Shown: positions 604 to 47,639, counted from the stretch's first letter. The stretch: DNA of 49,945 nt from a virus (IMGVR_UViG_3300005253_000501:1-49945), one strand, 5' to 3'. Translations and numbers: made by a program. The notes: generated by a model from the sequence alone, not told the origin.

Positions 604-1149
604 CTACCCTCCGGCTATTTGTCCCATAAGATTCATTATCATACTATAATCGGGATACTCATCTTCCCTACGTTCAATCATTCCAGCCTTTGCTCCCATA
701 GCACCGGCATACTTACTCATACGAACATCTTCCATTTGAAGCCTTGCAGGTGCTCCTACTTCCTCTTCAAACTTCTTAGCTAAACCTGCTGTCTGAGTAG
801 TACCATATAGCCCTGAACTAACAAGAGCCTGTGTACCCTGAGCTACTGACTTTGTCTTTGCTCTGCCTATTTGAGCTTCAAAACCTTTACCAAACTGACC
901 ACCGGGCTGGAAGAGTCCTATGATTTGTTCATATATATTCTTTGCTTCAGCATATCTCTGCTCATTAGCAGCCCTTGCTGATGCGTATTGTCCAGAAAAT
1001 TGACCAGCTAATTGATTTAATGCTCCACTATAATTTGAACTTATACTTGAACTTGGATTTGGTCTGTATGAAGTTACAGATAAACCAGCAGATGAAGATT
1101 TCGGACTGCCTGACAATTTACTTAGATTCCTACCACGATCTGTAGCCAT
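604..1149 (-). CDS. Putative internal virion or tail-associated protein
   Basis: 181 residues. The first 45 are Ser/Pro/Asn-rich and probably disordered. The rest is Ala/Gln/Glu-rich and predicted helical, with RAANEQRYAEAKNIYEQII in the middle and a Gly/Ala-rich C-terminus. No family is recognised. Its place between the nozzle-like gene and a fiber gene, and its helical composition, suggest a tail-associated or ejected protein; this is inference from position only. Its start codon overlaps the stop of the upstream gene at 1149. Confidence 0.55.
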   Translation of the reverse strand: MATDRGRNLSKLSGSPKSSSAGLSVTSYRPNPSSSISSNYSGALNQLAGQFSGQYASARAANEQRYAEAKNIYEQIIGLFQPGGQFGKGFEAQIGRAKTKSVAQGTQALVSSGLYGTTQTAGLAKKFEEEVGAPARLQMEDVRMSKYAGAMGAKAGMIERREDEYPDYSMIMNLMGQIAGG

Positions 1150-2747
1150 TACCTTATTCTCCCTGCATCTTGTACATCAACCAATACTCTATTGATTGCA
1201 AACGTTTCACTTGCTGTAGAATTATAAAATTTTATTCCTATATAAGCACCACGTACCCTTAACCGTATCCGGGTTTTTCTCCCAGTTCCACTCAAGGTTC
1301 CTGTAACTTGTGGAGTAGCACCATCCTTAATATCCTCTATCAAAGTCTCTGCATCATCTGCTGAATATATATCATAAGTAACTCCATCTGAATCAGCGTG
1401 TGCACCTCCAGACGCTCCACCAGCTAATTCAATAGTCAATGAAGTTAATTTACCTTCCACATCCTCCTCTCCCATTTGTAAAATAGGATAAAGAACATAA
1501 GAAGAAATTGCATCATCAGTAGCACCTACATCATCACTCTTAGCTGCTGTATCAAACTTTCTGATATACCCATCTTTACAACCAACCAGCAAATCACGAT
1601 AATCTTTATCATTTGCATCATAATAGAATAAGGAATAAGCACCACACTCATCAGGATAAGACTCAGGAAACAACCCACTTATCTTAGCACCCAGACTAAA
1701 CCAATAATTTGAATTAGAGCCATCTGATAATTTTGTAATACAAATAACAATACCAAATCTTTTTCTATCATAAGCTAATGTAATTCTATGTGTTGTTGGA
1801 TCAGCATCCTCATCACCAATGAGTTCTGGTAAACTTATCTCTGAGATATTTGTAATCTTTCCCATATCTCTTTCCATCTTATAAAGACCACCAGTACCCC
1901 AGAAATATAAATTTCTCTCATTATCAAAACACCAACTGTGTGCTCCATATATTCCTACTGTTTTATCAAGATCATCCAATGAACCACCAGCAGCAGGATC
2001 ACCACGCAATACCCAGATACTTGTAGCACAACCAAATATTAAATAATCATCACTATATGGTATCAGGCATCGAACAATATCCCCAATCAAACCAGCATCT
2101 GCATTTCCGCCAGCTACAGGTGATTGTGCATCACTGGCAGTATAAGCAAAATCCGTATGATCTGCTTGACGAGACATATACCATTGCTCAGGATTATCTG
2201 AATTTCCAGATAAAACCATCCTCCCTCTCCATAGACACCCAAGATACGCCTGATCGGGCAAAGAACCTGAAGCATCATCAGGGTACACTGTCCAATCATA
2301 CCAATGAGGTGTGGTAGATGCCTGTGCTACAGCAGAAGGTACTTTGTCTTCAGGGTCCATACTTCCACCTGATAAAGCTCCTGATGTTACAAATGTACCA
2401 CTTGTAGTATATCCATAAATTATTGTCTTAGCTGTATTAACAAAATCAACAAGCATAGTAGCACCTGATCCGGCTTGAGTAACTATTGATCCTCTTGTTG
2501 GTGCAGTTGTCAACGCTGCTACCGTCAATTTTGTATTGATAAAATCCGCAATCTTTAGATTAGTTCCATTGACAATAAAGACCTTCTGGAATCCTTCAAA
2601 CATTGTAAGATTATCAGAAGTATCAATGTCCCCATTAGCTGCTGCCAATTCTACCATTGTTCCTGCACTCACTTCGTACCAAGCCTCATTGTTTCCAATA
2701 GCAACCAGTCTTCTAACAGGTGCTCTTTCATTTAATGATACCACCAT
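1149..2747 (-). CDS. Tail nozzle/beta-propeller-like protein, large C-terminal part
   Basis: 532 residues of beta-rich sequence with repeated short blades such as DDYLIFGCATSIWVLRGDP, RNLYFWGTGGLYKME and RDLLVGCKDGYIRKFD. This is the kind of pattern found in the propeller body of podovirus nozzle (tail tubular B-like) proteins. The family's usual N-terminus is absent here and is found instead in the 79-residue frame at 3970-4209. The first 20 bases overlap the 3' end of an HNH endonuclease gene, whose end supplies the start codon. Residues 11-27 (VRRLVAIGNNEAWYEV) echo the last residues of the frame upstream of the HNH (VRRLVAASNNKIWYES). The gene therefore looks like the distal part of an interrupted gene, still open and probably expressed. 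Confidence 0.65.
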   Translation of the reverse strand: MVVSLNERAPVRRLVAIGNNEAWYEVSAGTMVELAAANGDIDTSDNLTMFEGFQKVFIVNGTNLKIADFINTKLTVAALTTAPTRGSIVTQAGSGATMLVDFVNTAKTIIYGYTTSGTFVTSGALSGGSMDPEDKVPSAVAQASTTPHWYDWTVYPDDASGSLPDQAYLGCLWRGRMVLSGNSDNPEQWYMSRQADHTDFAYTASDAQSPVAGGNADAGLIGDIVRCLIPYSDDYLIFGCATSIWVLRGDPAAGGSLDDLDKTVGIYGAHSWCFDNERNLYFWGTGGLYKMERDMGKITNISEISLPELIGDEDADPTTHRITLAYDRKRFGIVICITKLSDGSNSNYWFSLGAKISGLFPESYPDECGAYSLFYYDANDKDYRDLLVGCKDGYIRKFDTAAKSDDVGATDDAISSYVLYPILQMGEEDVEGKLTSLTIELAGGASGGAHADSDGVTYDIYSADDAETLIEDIKDGATPQVTGTLSGTGRKTRIRLRVRGAYIGIKFYNSTASETFAINRVLVDVQDAGRIR

Positions 2748-3171
2748 TATCTAAATACCTCTGTGCTATTGCACAAAATTGTTTATCTTCTACAATTGCT
2801 AATTTAGCATTACACTGTTGACAAAGCAATCCTCTTACTTTTCCCGTTTTATGGTTGTGGTCAACACATAAAGATATATCCAATTTAGATTGATGTTTGC
2901 CACACATTGCACAACATCCCTCTTGTTCAACAAACATTCTATCCCAATCTTTTATTGTAATGCCATATCTTTGTTTTAATTTAACATTCCTAAAATATTC
3001 TTTTTGTTTTTTAGAAATTTTTCTTTTAATTTCTGGTTTATGATAATGTTCTCTATTCCAAGAATTATGACAACTCTTACACCAATAAGTTAACCCATCT
3101 TTAGCATGTTGTTTCTTATAAAATTCAGATAAATCTTTCTTCTTTTTACATTGAGTACATTTCTTTTTCAT
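2728..3171 (-). CDS. HNH homing endonuclease (endonuclease VII family), inserted in tail gene
   Basis: 147 residues. The N-terminus has a zinc-ribbon-like KCTQCKKKKDLSEF...CKSC. The C-terminal half has the recombination endonuclease VII signature GCCAMCGKHQ, VDHNHKTGKVRGLLC and QQCN, with the metal ligands and the catalytic DH intact. The start overlaps the upstream stop by ATGA and the end overlaps the next gene by 20 bases. It thus sits exactly between two parts of what appears to be one tail gene. Free-standing homing nucleases of this type spread by cutting uninserted alleles. It is the first of four intact copies in the window. Confidence 0.9.
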   Translation of the reverse strand: MKKKCTQCKKKKDLSEFYKKQHAKDGLTYWCKSCHNSWNREHYHKPEIKRKISKKQKEYFRNVKLKQRYGITIKDWDRMFVEQEGCCAMCGKHQSKLDISLCVDHNHKTGKVRGLLCQQCNAKLAIVEDKQFCAIAQRYLDNGGIIK

Positions 3172-3968
3172 AATGATTCATACCAAATTTTATTATTACT
3201 CGCTGCTACTAATCTTCTTACAGTAGCCATATTATTCTCACCTGTAACCGTTCCAGTAGGACTTCCAGAGCCAGTCCCAGACCCATCAAGAGTAATACCG
3301 GTAGGTAACACAGGATCAAAAGGTATTGTTGTCCAAGACCACTCATCTCCAGTTGTGGTTCCAGTAGAATTTATTGAATCTATTCTCCAGTATCTTGCAT
3401 CAAGATAAGCATACGGAGTATAAACAGAAAGACTAAATGATAAACCCACTTGTCCTTCTGAAACTCTTGTTAAACTTCCTGATGAAGTACCATAATAAAC
3501 ATCATAAGATGTTGCACCACCACCATCTTCCCAAGTTATGGTAGCTTGATCTAATGTAACAGTATCAGCAACATCAGTAGGAGTAGGATTTATTGCCTTT
3601 GATGGTGGTCCACCAGTAGTAAAAGACTGAGTTTCAGAAAATTGAGTCTCGGTCCCCCCCTGCTCATCGATACGAACTATTGCACCAATTTTCCATGTAT
3701 AACTTGTTTGTAAAGAATATGTCACAAAAGGACCAGCAAAGATAGCTGTACTATATCTTGTCTGAGAGGAAGTATTTCCAGACTTTACAAAATCCCCATC
3801 TATATATAATTCCCAAGATGTAATATCTCCTACATTTACAGCAGGAGGATTTGTAGGAGTAGGACTCAAATCAAAGGTAAGAATAACGGTAAGCCGTTGT
3901 AAAGGACTACTCCAAGTTCCAACACCAGTTTCACCATCTTCAGGAGATATTAAATTTATAGTAGCCAT
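3168..3968 (-). CDS. Fibronectin type III-like domain protein, module within split tail gene
   Basis: 266 residues from ATG at 3968, which follows the preceding stop directly (TAATATG). Longer in-frame starts would only overlap the previous gene. It has Ig/FN3-like beta sequence with LISPEDGETGVGT, TSYTWKIGAIVRI and a second repeat with GGATSYDVYYGTSSGSLTRVS and YWRIDSINS. Such domains decorate phage virion proteins and bind surface glycans; that is family knowledge. The last 20 residues (MATVRRLVAASNNKIWYESL) do not belong to the FN3 fold and match the beginning of the nozzle-like protein downstream. A 13-base direct repeat flanks the FN3 part. Confidence 0.7.
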   Translation of the reverse strand: MATINLISPEDGETGVGTWSSPLQRLTVILTFDLSPTPTNPPAVNVGDITSWELYIDGDFVKSGNTSSQTRYSTAIFAGPFVTYSLQTSYTWKIGAIVRIDEQGGTETQFSETQSFTTGGPPSKAINPTPTDVADTVTLDQATITWEDGGGATSYDVYYGTSSGSLTRVSEGQVGLSFSLSVYTPYAYLDARYWRIDSINSTGTTTGDEWSWTTIPFDPVLPTGITLDGSGTGSGSPTGTVTGENNMATVRRLVAASNNKIWYESL

Positions 3969-3969
3969 A

Positions 3970-4209
3970 TTACACCACCGAACTAACAGTACAAAGGGCA
4001 ACGATTGGTTGTTCTGCTGCACCTATCTGAGTACCAGCACCCCACTTCTCAAAGCCGGGACGTTGTCCAATACGAAACTTCTTTTCAAGTACATCCTGTG
4101 ATCTGCAATTATTCATAAATTCTGAATAATTTTTCATCACTTCATTAGATGGGAAACCTTTTAGGATGCCTTGTATCGGTACGGGTATTTCAATTTTCTC
4201 ATCTCCCAA
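3970..4209 (-). CDS. Tail nozzle-like protein, short N-terminal part
   Basis: 79 residues. NNCRSQDVLEKKFRIGQRPGFEKWG followed by EQPIVAL is typical of the extreme N-terminus of podovirus nozzle proteins, where an Arg-Pro-Gly-Phe stretch precedes the first propeller strand. The frame stops at TAA right after this segment, and the rest of such a protein is found only after an FN3 module and an HNH gene (1149-2747). It may be translated as a separate chain, or the stop may mark a decayed junction. No slippery sequence is visible at the stop. Confidence 0.6.
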   Translation of the reverse strand: MGDEKIEIPVPIQGILKGFPSNEVMKNYSEFMNNCRSQDVLEKKFRIGQRPGFEKWGAGTQIGAAEQPIVALCTVSSVV

Positions 4210-6116: not shown

Positions 6117-6491
6117 TTAACTAACCTCTTCCGCCTTGAAAATTCTCCTGATACATTCTTCGTGAATTGTGCCCCCCAAAGCCTGTGCTCCTGTTCTTGG
6201 ATCAGGTTCCTGTGCAATCAACTTATTCATAGCTGTTTTCAATAAACCCATCTCATGCTCATCAAGAACAATATCATCCCCAGCATCCCTTATTTGTTTT
6301 GCTAAATCACAAGCATCAACAATTTGAACTCCGTCCTTAAATATCCCCGGTAATCTTAACCACTGATGAAGATTGTCCTTTATGGGATATACAATTTCTT
6401 CAGTTACCAATTCAATACCACCTTTGTCATTTCTTTTGTTGACCTTAACTGTAACCGCGTACTTACTTAAATCAATTTTGAATTTTTTCAT
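6117..6491 (-). CDS. Small protein in head operon, unknown
   Basis: 124 residues, mixed charge, predicted soluble. KKFKIDLSKYAVTVKVNKRN at the start and LDEHEMGLLKTAMNKLIAQE near the middle suggest a compact alpha/beta fold. No family recognised. Its placement between the capsid-associated gene and the head-tail adaptor-like gene suggests an assembly role. Confidence 0.6.
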   Translation of the reverse strand: MKKFKIDLSKYAVTVKVNKRNDKGGIELVTEEIVYPIKDNLHQWLRLPGIFKDGVQIVDACDLAKQIRDAGDDIVLDEHEMGLLKTAMNKLIAQEPDPRTGAQALGGTIHEECIRRIFKAEEVS

Positions 6492-6520
6492 TTCCTGTCT
6501 CCTTGAACAATAAAAGATAG

Positions 6521-6544
6521 GTAAGGGCCAATTGGCCCCTACCC
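6521..6544 (-). terminator. Probable terminator after capsid-associated gene
   Basis: GGTA and TACC enclose GGGCC-AATT-GGCCC with one mismatch. On the minus strand the hairpin is followed by TATCTTTTATTG. It sits directly after the 400-residue gene and would reduce read-through into the tail genes. Confidence 0.6.
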
Positions 6545-6571
6545 AATAAATACATCTTAACCTGATGTTAA

Positions 6572-7774
6572 TTAGGGGATACTATCTACTGCAATTAAGT
6601 AATAAGTAGTTCCACCAAGTACAATAGGAATAACTTTATCGCTTGTATCAACTGTAACATCCCCTGTGCAGGCTTGATAATCAACAGCATCAGATTCAAT
6701 ATTAAACAAATTTATAAAACCATGATCTGTAGCATCTTTATCTATGCGGAAAACAGTATTCATAGCAGTATTTATCGTACCACGAGTACGAACACGCACA
6801 CCAAATTCTTCGGTAGCTGCAACACCTTCACGATTTACAGCTATATCTAAACCACCAAAGTTCGTTTTAGTACCAGAAGTCAAATCCTGTGCATCGATTT
6901 GCATAGCAATAGCATTAGTAATATCACCAGAACCAGACTTCAGAGATATAGAAACATTTGCACCATATATCTGCCCAAGTGTTCCACCACTTCTGTTAGT
7001 TATAGCACAGTTAATACCCCGATAGGTGTAATTAGTATCGTTGGCTGCATAGTTACTACCACTGACGTGGATCAATGCACTATAAGCATCTCCTGTTGAT
7101 ACAGTCACTTTATCACCAGATACCTCCAACAAATAACTCTGTGCAGCAGTTGTTCCTATGAAAAAATTATCTCCATCAATCTTAACACCATACTCACGAC
7201 CAGAAGTTGCTGAAGAACGTACCGGAGCAAAATGTGCTCCTGTAGCAGATATTTGCATTCCAGTAGGAAATAATTTTGCTAAAACTATGCCAGTAGCATT
7301 TGAACGATCTACGGTTTCCTCACAAAGAGCACATGCTAATGGATCACCATCACCTGTTACAGCAGCCAAATGCTGTGTTGCATCAGAAATTCCTAAAGAA
7401 TCCCCAATAGTACAATTCTTATTTGTTCTTACTGGAACAATAGCTCCATTGGCAACATAAATTTCCAACCAACGAGGACCAGTTTGACCTGCAAAAGAAG
7501 TACCAGCAACAACACCGGCTAACCATTGAAAATTAGCAGTTGCCGGGTCTTCCACTAAAAGAAACTTACCTTCATTCTGATTACCCTCAGCAGTCGTATT
7601 AGGTGAGGTTTGACAACCGGGTACTCCACCAGCACCCTTATCATAACCAAGAACATTTGCCGTTGCATCATAGTTGTAACATACAGGCATACCCTCACGT
7701 ATGATATTTGTACCCTCGTAATACACACGCTTTCTTTGTGCTTCAACAATGTTTGTTCCAAAACTTGTTCTCAT
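6572..7774 (-). CDS. Capsid-associated or fiber-like structural protein
   Basis: 400 residues. The N-terminal half has segments such as PVCYNYDATANVLGYDKG and RWLEIYVANGAIVPVRTNK. The C-terminal half is beta-rich with many Thr, Gly and Asp and phrases such as DDFRIDKDATDHGFINL-type strands, ending in GTTYYLIAVDSIP. It directly follows the capsid gene, apart from an inserted HNH gene, so a capsid decoration or head fiber role is likely. No family is firmly recognised. Confidence 0.55.
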   Translation of the reverse strand: MRTSFGTNIVEAQRKRVYYEGTNIIREGMPVCYNYDATANVLGYDKGAGGVPGCQTSPNTTAEGNQNEGKFLLVEDPATANFQWLAGVVAGTSFAGQTGPRWLEIYVANGAIVPVRTNKNCTIGDSLGISDATQHLAAVTGDGDPLACALCEETVDRSNATGIVLAKLFPTGMQISATGAHFAPVRSSATSGREYGVKIDGDNFFIGTTAAQSYLLEVSGDKVTVSTGDAYSALIHVSGSNYAANDTNYTYRGINCAITNRSGGTLGQIYGANVSISLKSGSGDITNAIAMQIDAQDLTSGTKTNFGGLDIAVNREGVAATEEFGVRVRTRGTINTAMNTVFRIDKDATDHGFINLFNIESDAVDYQACTGDVTVDTSDKVIPIVLGGTTYYLIAVDSIP

Positions 7775-7878: not shown

Positions 7879-8370
7879 TTAAAACTCTTCTATGTAATCT
7901 GCGGCACGTCTTAACCTAACAGGCTCATCACCCATCGAACCAAGTGCTGTGTTGCAAGCATTACATAACAATCCTCTAATCTTCATTGTCTTATGACAAT
8001 GGTCAACATCAAACGCTTTTCCTAAACCAGCCTGATGACGTCCACAGATAGCACAACAACCATTTTGTTTCTTTATAAGACTGTCATACATCTCTACATA
8101 ATCATCAACAGACATACCAAATCTACTTGCCCTACCACGTAAACGGCGAGCTTTACGATATTCAGCATCGGATTGATACCTCTTGTGGTATCGAGCATTC
8201 TGCTGTTTATTAAGTTTGATCCGATTCTTTAGAAGATACCCTCTACATTGTTCCTTACCACAAGATTTACATCCCGGACACAAACCATCCTTAGCTGATG
8301 TACGTTTATGAAACTCAGATATTGATTTAACCTGTTTACATTTTGTACAACGCTTAGTAAGCTTTGGCAT
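7879..8370 (-). CDS. HNH homing endonuclease (endonuclease VII family)
   Basis: 163 residues. Zinc-ribbon-like N-terminus (CTKCKQVKSISEF, CPGCKSCG) and an endonuclease VII core: GCCAICGRHQ, VDHCHKTMKIRGLLC, NACNTALGSMGD. All expected metal ligands and the catalytic DH are present. It lies between the major capsid gene and the capsid-associated gene, a typical intergenic home for a free-standing homing nuclease. It is diverged from the copy at 2728-3171, so recent duplication within this genome is unlikely. Confidence 0.9.
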   Translation of the reverse strand: MPKLTKRCTKCKQVKSISEFHKRTSAKDGLCPGCKSCGKEQCRGYLLKNRIKLNKQQNARYHKRYQSDAEYRKARRLRGRASRFGMSVDDYVEMYDSLIKKQNGCCAICGRHQAGLGKAFDVDHCHKTMKIRGLLCNACNTALGSMGDEPVRLRRAADYIEEF

Positions 8371-22625: not shown

Positions 22626-22695
22626 TGGTCTTTTAGTGTAATGGCAGCACTCCGAGTAGGGGTTCGGGAAACTGGTTCGATTCCAGATAGACTAC
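22626..22695 (+). tRNA. Aberrant tRNA-like gene, isotype uncertain
   Basis: Acceptor TGGTCTT (22626-22632) pairs with TAGACTA (22688-22694) with one wobble and one mismatch. The D-arm with AATGGCA and the T-arm CTGG-TTCGATT-CCAG are clear. The anticodon stem TCCGA/TCGGG encloses an 8-base loop GTAGGGGT; taking T22657 as U33 the anticodon would read AGG, with extra G's. Variable loop and linker are short. It may be a degenerate tRNA or one with an expanded anticodon loop. No CCA is encoded. Confidence 0.5.
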
Positions 22696-22696
22696 T

Positions 22697-22767
22697 GTGG
22701 CTGTGGTGTAATGGTAGCACAACAGGTCGTGATCCTGTGGGTGTGGATTCGACTTCCATCGGTCACC
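22697..22767 (+). tRNA. tRNA-His (GTG)
   Basis: Full cloverleaf: acceptor GTGGCTG/CGGTCAC with discriminator C at 22767, D stem GTGT/GCAC, anticodon stem ACAGG/CCTGT with loop TCGTGAT, T stem GTGGA/TCCAT with loop TTCGACT. C73 is the histidine-type discriminator. Two oddities: position 33 is C instead of T, and position -1 is T where histidine tRNAs have G. CCA is not encoded. Starts one base after the upstream tRNA-like gene, so both are processed from one transcript. Confidence 0.8.
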
Positions 22768-41902: not shown

Positions 41903-41931
41903 AATAAAGGGCAGGATTACTGCCCTTTATT
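41903..41931. terminator. Bidirectional terminator between convergent arms
   Basis: AATAAAGGGCAG (41903-41914), loop GATTA, CTGCCCTTTATT (41920-41931): a perfect 12-base stem with A/T-rich ends on both strands. It separates the plus-strand early arm from the minus-strand late arm and includes the stop codon of the band-7 gene. Confidence 0.85.
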
Positions 41932-42448
41932 CTTCTAATGCAGTATTAGTCAGCAACCGGATATTTCTCGTCTTGCCTATATCTGTTATTCCTACCGAAA
42001 GAACATCAATCCCCCAGCCACGAGCCTTAGCCTGCAATGCTTTGGTAATTACATCCTTCATCTCAACTACCTGAATCTCATCCCTTGTAGAAACAGTTAT
42101 GTAATCCACACACGCAACAAGAGCTAAGTTCTGCAAACTCTGATCGTAATCCTGCACCTTCATAATAGCAGCAGTAGCATTCTTGATCCTGTACTTGATA
42201 GCAAGACCGATGCAAAGATCAACTTGGTCAAAGGACCATACACTCTGAATCCTTACATCTTTGACCTGTGGCATGACAGCTATTACAGCCATCTGTTGTA
42301 TCAAAGGCCAATATATGTACCATCCCGGAATAAGAGGATAGGTGTACCTGCCTAACGTAATACGACACCCACCTTCATCTGGATTGACCATATAAAGTCG
42401 AGGAAATATGCTCAGTAACCTATCAAAAATTTGTCTCAGCCAGTTCAT
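41927..42448 (-). CDS. SPFH/band-7 (prohibitin-like) domain protein
   Basis: 173 residues. VNPDEGGCRITLGRYTYPLI then GWYIYWPLIQQM is the start of the SPFH/band-7 fold. IQSVWSFDQVDLCIGLAIKY, LALVACVDYITVSTRDEI and ALQAKARGWGIDVLSVGITD continue it. A short hydrophobic N-terminus (RQIFDRLLSIFPRLY) could associate with the membrane. Host members such as HflK/HflC control the FtsH protease. A phage copy might modify that complex or the membrane at lysis. It neighbours the holin-like gene. Confidence 0.75.
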   Translation of the reverse strand: MNWLRQIFDRLLSIFPRLYMVNPDEGGCRITLGRYTYPLIPGWYIYWPLIQQMAVIAVMPQVKDVRIQSVWSFDQVDLCIGLAIKYRIKNATAAIMKVQDYDQSLQNLALVACVDYITVSTRDEIQVVEMKDVITKALQAKARGWGIDVLSVGITDIGKTRNIRLLTNTALEE

Positions 42449-46964: not shown

Positions 46965-47639
46965 TCAATAAGGCATAATAATTCTTGTGTGAGGTGTTAC
47001 TGCAGTACCATCTGCTGTTAGATTATAACCACCAACTTTATCATTTAATCCTCGTATCAAATCCCAGTATGCTGTAAGCCCTAATAGAAAATGAGAAGGT
47101 GTAAATCCTTTGGCCAAACTCGGAATTATTTTTTCAAAATTATCGGCTCTATCCGAGGCAGTTGCTCCGGGCCATACGGATAAATCCCAACAAGCCATCT
47201 CTGCAATATAACCACTCCCAAAAAAACTAAGAGTCGATCCGGCTCTACAACCTATTCCAGTTCTACTTAAATTAGAAGCCTGTGAAGAAGCAACGGTGGT
47301 TCCCTTATTACCCCCATCCAAGAATATCCGCTTATCAGTTGTAGATGCTACTATTGCAATGGTATGATGCCAAGTATTATTACTCGGACCGGCAGTTGTA
47401 TCCATTACCCCATCCCCAGCAACCGATTTGATTCCAAATTTCACCGAATTTGTGGATTTAGAAGCATATAAAGTGTACGCCTCATCGGTAGTGGTTTTAT
47501 CGGCCAATGAAAATAATCCACCGAAATCTGCCTCATCGAGAATATTAAACCAACAACCTACTGCCCATTCTTCCCCAGTAAATATGGCTGGTTCTACCAA
47601 CAAATTTTCAGATGAAGCACTATCGAATAATCGTGCCAT
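46965..47639 (-). CDS. LamG/concanavalin A-like lectin domain protein
   Basis: 224 residues. EEWAVGCWFNILDEADFGGL, YTLYASKSTNSVKFGIKS, NTWHHTIAIVAS, KRIFLDGGNKGT and FFGSGYIAEMACWDLSVWP are the strand and ligand positions of a LamG-like jelly roll. These domains bind glycans, so this is probably a virion adhesin. Lies between two fiber-like genes and the ejection genes. Confidence 0.8.
   Translation of the reverse strand: MARLFDSASSENLLVEPAIFTGEEWAVGCWFNILDEADFGGLFSLADKTTTDEAYTLYASKSTNSVKFGIKSVAGDGVMDTTAGPSNNTWHHTIAIVASTTDKRIFLDGGNKGTTVASSQASNLSRTGIGCRAGSTLSFFGSGYIAEMACWDLSVWPGATASDRADNFEKIIPSLAKGFTPSHFLLGLTAYWDLIRGLNDKVGGYNLTADGTAVTPHTRIIMPY

What the first reader, a model, noticed from the sequence alone, without database searches (positions are those of the whole stretch)
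1149..4209. Tail nozzle gene broken into parts by an HNH gene and an FN3 module
Seen: 79 residues with the nozzle-type RPGFEKW start, then a frame with FN3-like domains, then an intact endonuclease VII-type gene, then 532 residues of propeller-like sequence. VRRLVA-NN--WYE is encoded twice: at the end of the FN3 frame, immediately before the HNH ATG, and at the start of the 532-residue frame, immediately after the HNH end, which also gives that frame its ATG. Inferred: the HNH inserted at this point and brought or duplicated a short 5' end so that the distal part kept a start codon. The tail protein would then be built from separately translated pieces.
Basis: partly seen in the sequence, partly recalled or inferred. 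Interest (0 to 1): 0.7.

Follow-up and report, generated by a model that had tools for sequence, protein, structure and literature searches.

The report
Split phage nozzle with swappable adhesins

Summary
On the minus strand lie a 79-aa gene (G1), an FN3 gene (M1), an endonuclease VII/HNH gene, and a 532-aa seven-bladed propeller gene (P). P folds like podophage nozzle proteins but lacks their first 64-83 residues, roughly G1's length. Among 104 viral contigs with P, G1 and P never share an ORF (0/90). The repeated 'VRRLVA-NN--WYE' predates the HNH: all 66 split loci have an adhesin-type gene ending in it, normally -4 to +12 nt before P, with no HNH between. C-terminal copies and P copies form two distinct families (Ala versus Gly at position 9), under protein-level constraint. 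P's ATG is native. The seam is a cassette site: FN3, lectin-like and GP4-fibre-I-like genes come and go, sometimes fused to P, sometimes leaving P without its hairpin, which then ends the preceding gene. Inference: nozzle blade 1 is split, and adhesins dock by supplying its hairpin. The HNH is a passenger, alone in the M1/P gap only here.

The parts
3970..4209 (-). G1: 79-aa gene (TTG start), inferred N-terminal segment of the nozzle (NN.R...G.RPG.KW...PIVALCTVSS)
   Evidence: 22 homologues; profile hit 119 bits. 0 of 90 loci share an ORF with P. Solved nozzles align to P only from residue 65-84 on.
3168..3968 (-). M1: adhesin-type gene, 266 aa, starting ATG (MATINLISPED...)
   Evidence: AF2 model with 25 homologues: residues about 120-220 mostly pLDDT above 80, FN3 folds in PDB.
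3309..3611 (-). FN3 domain of M1 (about residues 120-220)
3171..3224 (-). C-terminal hairpin tag of M1, TVRRLVAASNNKIWYESL, directly before the stop
   Evidence: weakly ordered on its own in the M1 model (pLDDT about 50).
2728..3171 (-). Endonuclease VII-type HNH gene, 147 aa, lodged in the M1/P seam; 28% GC against 38-41% around it
   Evidence: PF02945 E 3e-16, phrog_2633 E 3e-32, GC.
1149..2747 (-). P: 532-aa seven-bladed propeller part of the nozzle, native ATG at 2745-2747
   Evidence: AF2 pLDDT 78, pTM 0.68; Z 18.9 to Pa223 tail, 18.6 to VP1, 17.1 to P22 gp10.
2673..2714 (-). P's own hairpin RRLVAIGNNEAWYE (residues 12-25), first hairpin of propeller blade 1
   Evidence: Strands 15-18 and 21-27, pLDDT about 84.
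2758..2762 (-). AGAGG, likely ribosome-binding site of P, inside the 3' end of the HNH gene
   Evidence: Read from sequence; in most relatives the codons for E-D-I of the tag supply GAGGA before the next ATG.

Best explanation
A naturally split nozzle (tail-tubular-B / P22 gp10-type hub) whose break lies in blade 1 of the propeller, between the first strand and the following hairpin. G1 supplies the N-terminal segment and P the propeller; adhesin/fibre genes occupy the break and are exchanged as cassettes. SHOWN: the gene arrangement, the predicted fold, the missing N-terminal 64-83 residues in P, antiquity and protein-level constraint of the repeated hairpin, repeated cassette turnover, and presence of the arrangement without the HNH. 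INFERRED: G1 and P reassemble in the virion, and the C-terminal hairpin lets the adhesin dock on the nozzle by completing or adding to blade 1 in trans. The best natural hint for complementation is the class in which P starts right after the hairpin (MAAGTM...) and the hairpin is instead the C-terminus of the preceding adhesin gene. The HNH is a free-standing homing-type gene that entered this already existing seam.
For: Fold: podophage nozzles fill the top 13 Foldseek ranks (LME-1, SU10, Kp9, VP1, T7, GP4 and others), and structural alignments start at residue 65 (Pa223, VP1), 67 (P22), 73 (SU10), 84 (A4) for model residue 7-10. Intact comparators LUZ24 gp56, P22 gp10 and C72C1 read straight through this point. 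Separate ORFs 90/90; G1 stop to next ATG is -1, 0 or +1 nt in 67 of 90. All 66 split loci have at least one upstream gene ending in the hairpin. Tag identity 0.54 against 0.17 and 0.09 just upstream; leave-one-out sorting 47/48 and 32/33 (51/55 and 33/35 with other class limits). Tag codons: synonymous change near saturation, pN about 0.1 in the most similar pairs. Arrangement state changes 25 times on the P tree. L045/L046: about 81% DNA identity on both sides, with a roughly 500-nt module cassette exactly between tag stop and hairpin in L046. Cassettes are fibre/adhesin types: GP4 fibre I PF23140 E 5e-42, Laminin_G_3 E 2e-18, FN3. In SU10 the short-fibre dock loop is an extension of blade 1 (PMC9509320).
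Against: G1's match to nozzle N-termini by sequence is weak (profile-profile E 0.06, though colinear); P against the LUZ24 family is also weak (E 0.03). No virion data. In the majority split class P keeps its own hairpin, so the extra tag need not enter P's blade. No complex could be predicted here. SU10's dock loop is formed by residues 839-857, far from the N-terminal hairpin in sequence, so the spatial link is only by blade.
Confidence: 0.66

Rival explanations
1. One reading: the HNH inserted into a continuous gene and brought or duplicated the short repeat, giving P its start codon.
For: The HNH lies exactly between the two copies and its 3' end overlaps P's ATG.
Against: Both copies and the native ATG exist in relatives with no HNH in the gap; copies belong to two old families; L043 aligns from P's ATG onward.
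Confidence: 0.03
2. Tag without docking role: fossil of ancestral module-propeller fusions, or seam of recombination and translation coupling; its end (GAGGA in the E-D-I codons) serves as ribosome-binding site of the next gene.
For: GAGGATATATAATGG-like consensus at the stop/start seam; the seam is the cassette boundary; a fused class exists.
Against: The 18 residues are conserved at protein level with synonymous saturation; the tag family differs systematically from the P family; tagged genes also occur upstream of G1 (L085, L105, L111), where the next gene is not P.
Confidence: 0.2
3. RNA- or ribosome-level joining: an intron, programmed frameshift or bypass fuses M1 to P at the repeat (the copies are 504 nt apart, in frame).
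For: Removing the 504 nt between the copies would give the frame of the fused class.
Against: No Rfam match at E up to 1; only about 60 nt of that span lie outside the HNH ORF; in HNH-free relatives the relative frame varies (29/7/3), and P has its own ATG and an upstream purine-rich site.
Confidence: 0.04
4. G1 is not the nozzle N-terminus but a small tail accessory protein; P alone is a shortened nozzle.
For: Weak sequence match; G1 has no convincing Pfam or PHROG hit.
Against: G1's size fits the missing 64-83 residues, it is present in 90 loci just ahead of the adhesins or P, and it carries the NNVR..G..P and RPG pattern also seen in LUZ24 and P22 nozzle N-termini.
Confidence: 0.2

Closest known systems
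Podophage nozzle / hub proteins (T7 gp12, P22 gp10, SU10 gp17, LUZ24 gp56, GP4 nozzle)
   Same: Seven-bladed propeller with extra strands after the second blade; 376-424 residues aligned to solved nozzles; fibres dock on the nozzle in known phages (PMC9509320, PMC6702177).
   Different: There one polypeptide; here the N-terminal segment is a separate gene and adhesin genes lie in the break, ending in a copy of the blade-1 hairpin.
Genes in pieces next to homing endonucleases (Aeh1 mobE/nrdA, T4 mobA/gene 60, phage 25 seg/gene 43; PMC2988022)
   Same: Free-standing endonuclease tightly overlapped with flanking genes, beside a split essential gene; phage 25 may show an endonuclease entering an already split gene.
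   Different: The split is conserved in the whole group without the endonuclease and holds adhesin cassettes with a repeated protein hairpin.
GP4-type tail fibres (PF23140, fibre I gp80)
   Same: The same fibre family lies in the seam of at least a dozen relatives.
   Different: Not found near the window's own seam; a hairpin tag was not seen in five phages with this family that were checked.

Membership tests
Podophage nozzle protein | Seven-bladed beta-propeller hub fold | tested here: met
   AF2 pTM 0.68; Z 17-19 to solved nozzles, 376-424 residues aligned. Other propellers score Z 17-18.5 over about 250-280 residues only.
Podophage nozzle protein | Insertion (nozzle domain) between blades 2 and 3 and C-terminal platform strands | tested here: inconclusive
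   Strand order fits (strands 88-127 after the second four-strand unit; strands and helix 430-531), coordinates not available for a direct check.
Podophage nozzle protein | Single continuous polypeptide including the N-terminal 64-83 residues | tested here: not met
   P lacks them; G1 separate in 90/90 loci.
Podophage nozzle protein | Hexamer in the virion bound to adaptor and fibres | not testable with these tools
   No virion data.
Endonuclease VII / HNH free-standing gene | Endonuclease_7 domain | tested here: met
   59.5 bits against cut-off 23.6.
Homing endonuclease | Cuts the uninvaded seam and is copied into it | not testable with these tools
   Only position, low GC and unrelated contexts of 66 relatives.
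Group I/II intron with ORF | Ribozyme core around the ORF | tested here: not met
   No Rfam match; about 60 nt of room.
FN3 domain proteins | FN3 fold in M1 | tested here: met
   Foldseek hits are FN3 domains, e.g. 7jgt TMt 0.68; Pfam fn3 on homologue L036 E 2e-4, just under its cut-off.

The most novel reading that the evidence does not exclude
The hairpin is a plug: interchangeable adhesins attach to the nozzle by donating blade-1 strands in trans, so that a split beta-propeller works as a universal socket for receptor-binding modules, with the two hairpin variants marking two sockets.
Probability: 0.4. Interest if true: 0.82.

Novelty: new variant of a known kind. Interest (0 to 1): 0.6.

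Why it matters
Nozzle proteins are described as single chains on which fibres dock. A large, uncultured podophage group has the nozzle broken at blade 1, keeps adhesin genes in the break, and repeats a nozzle hairpin at the end of them. If the hairpin is the plug, it explains how receptor-binding parts are swapped without redesigning the tail, and gives a short modular docking element. It also warns against crediting an endonuclease with splitting a gene because it lies in the split.

Tried and rejected
HNH as cause of split and repeat: rejected by HNH-free relatives. Programmed frameshift or bypass: relative frames vary. Intron: no Rfam match and too little room. Recent gene conversion between copies: own pair hardly more alike than random pairs (0.465 against 0.449, permutation p 0.08). 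A second nozzle gene in the window as tag partner: none. Sequence route to nozzles: PDB profile search with P or G1 gave nothing useful; tblastn of P and of a fused relative against phages, no match. HNH relatives near nozzles: none of 66. G1-only scan of viral contigs found nothing, and its alignment was too variable to scan with. Papers on split nozzles or hairpin-tagged adhesins: none found in the library; the GP4 structure paper was not found there and the GP4 accession tried from memory was not in the collection.

Full report
What is there. The window is one 49,945-base virus record. On the minus strand, in order of transcription: G1 (4209-3970), M1 (3968-3168), an endonuclease VII-type HNH gene (3171-2728), P (2747-1149). 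All junctions are tight: G1 stop to M1 ATG 1 nt, M1/HNH overlap 4 nt, HNH/P overlap 20 nt. HNH GC is 28%, its neighbours 38-41%.

What P is. AlphaFold2 with 28 homologues gives a model (pLDDT 78, pTM 0.68) whose strand order fits a seven-bladed propeller. Foldseek ranks podophage tail nozzles first. VIA-align gives Pa223 Z 18.9 (403 residues, model 7-532 on chain 65-513), VP1 Z 18.6 (65-520), SU10 Z 17.4 (73-1005), cyanophage A4 Z 17.4 (84-1011), P22 gp10 Z 17.1 (67-472). Unrelated propellers reach similar Z but only over about 250-280 residues, so the nozzle assignment rests on length of match and on gene context. Each of these nozzles has 64-83 residues before the aligned part. G1, 72-79 aa in most relatives, fits that gap and has the NN.R...G.RPG pattern, like LUZ24 gp56 (GNNVRF..GK) and P22 gp10 (SFPG). 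A profile comparison is colinear but weak (E 0.06). In LUZ24, P22 and C72C1 the chain runs on without a break from the G1-like strand into the hairpin (for example LUZ24 PILDMFPFIRNNIPYWLLCSEQRLYLAD; alignment by eye). So the break lies just before the first hairpin of P. In SU10 and T7 blade 1 is closed by strands from both ends of the propeller, and SU10's short-fibre dock is an extension of the same blade (PMC9509320, PMC6702177).

Relatives. Scans of IMG/VR and of bacterial genomes gave 104 contigs with P (window included) after removing repeats by contig name, some still near copies. Four are truncated. The script puts 49 in class A (P with its own N-terminus), 17 in class C (P starting behind the hairpin) and 34 in the fused class; six of the 49 (L023, L030, L031, L050, L103, L104) have no hairpin in P, so by reading the sequences I count A 43, C 23, fused 34. 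All 66 in A or C have at least one upstream gene whose last residues are the hairpin. In class C the seam typically reads E-D-I-TAA-ATG-GCAGCAGG: the hairpin ends one gene and P begins behind it. G1 and P are never one ORF (0 of 90).

The repeat. C-terminal copies (tags) and P copies are two families: position 9 is Ala in 43 of 55 tags and Gly in 31 of 35 P copies, and Gly in all 15 unique copies that end the gene before a hairpin-less P. Held-out copies are sorted correctly in 47/48 and 32/33 cases (51/55 and 33/35). Tags are 54% identical on average while the 18 residues before them are 17% and the next 18 are 9%. Synonymous sites are near saturation (mean pS 0.82, mean pN 0.32; several of the most similar pairs have pN about 0.1). 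The tag is thus kept as protein. Its last codons also form GAGGA, a likely ribosome-binding site for the next gene. L085, L105 and L111 carry a tagged gene upstream of G1, so the tag is not just P's leader.

The seam is a cassette site. The arrangement changes at least 25 times on a 92-row tree of P, truncated rows counted as a state, and class C needs at least 13 changes on starred branches (quick tree; in that tree's labels the six re-read contigs are in class C). L045 and L046 are about 81% identical in DNA up to the tag's stop and again from the hairpin on; L046 has a module of about 157 aa in between, fused to P. Cassettes include FN3, a concanavalin-like domain (Laminin_G_3 E 2e-18), lectin-like domains (weak) and GP4 fibre I (PF23140, E 5e-42). 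The window's HNH is alone in the M1/P gap only here; L038 and L076 have HNH genes in the same seam beside GP4-fibre-I-like genes. None of 66 other HNH relatives lies near such a nozzle. T4-like phages offer precedents for endonuclease genes overlapping their neighbours and perhaps entering already split genes (PMC2988022), and endonuclease genes at boundaries of exchange (PMC10448857).

How it probably works. Shown: split coding, old repeat, cassette turnover, HNH-free relatives. Inferred: G1 and P form one nozzle subunit; class C P receives its hairpin from the gene before it; tags on M1-type adhesins pair with the nozzle or G1. M1's tag is a poorly ordered hairpin in isolation (pLDDT about 50), whereas P's copy is well placed (about 84), which fits a plug in search of a partner but does not prove it. 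The step least supported is what M1's tag binds when P has its own hairpin.

Noticed in passing
window 7879-8370 (-): A second endonuclease VII-type HNH gene (Endonuclease_7 E 2e-22), about 39% identical to the first over its best part, between a 400-aa and a 358-aa gene upstream of the seam.
   Followed up: partly
L103 about 1778-2265; also L104: P carries an extra in-frame domain of about 150 residues after residue 80, resembling the modules of the seam: a second place where modules enter the nozzle.
   Followed up: partly
L059, L060, L088, L089, L110 (P residues about 66-148): P appears to hold an internal duplication or insert near residues 70-127 (in L059 a segment LTHTTLTTAHA... is repeated as LTHAVLATAHA...).
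   Followed up: no
L037 5959-6180 / 6183-6737: P is frameshifted near residue 65 (two ORFs); sequencing error or a further split.
   Followed up: no
L085, L105, L111: A hairpin-tagged gene lies upstream of G1, and in L105 and L111 G1 is next to P.
   Followed up: partly
window 46965-47639 (-): Concanavalin-like (Laminin_G_3, E 5e-9) protein outside the seam, without the hairpin tag by profile search.
   Followed up: no
window 41927-42448 (-): SPFH/Band 7 domain protein (E 8e-16) in a phage genome.
   Followed up: no
window 22627-22767 (+): Two adjacent tRNA-like genes, one with a four-base anticodon call (aggg) and one tRNA-His.
   Followed up: no
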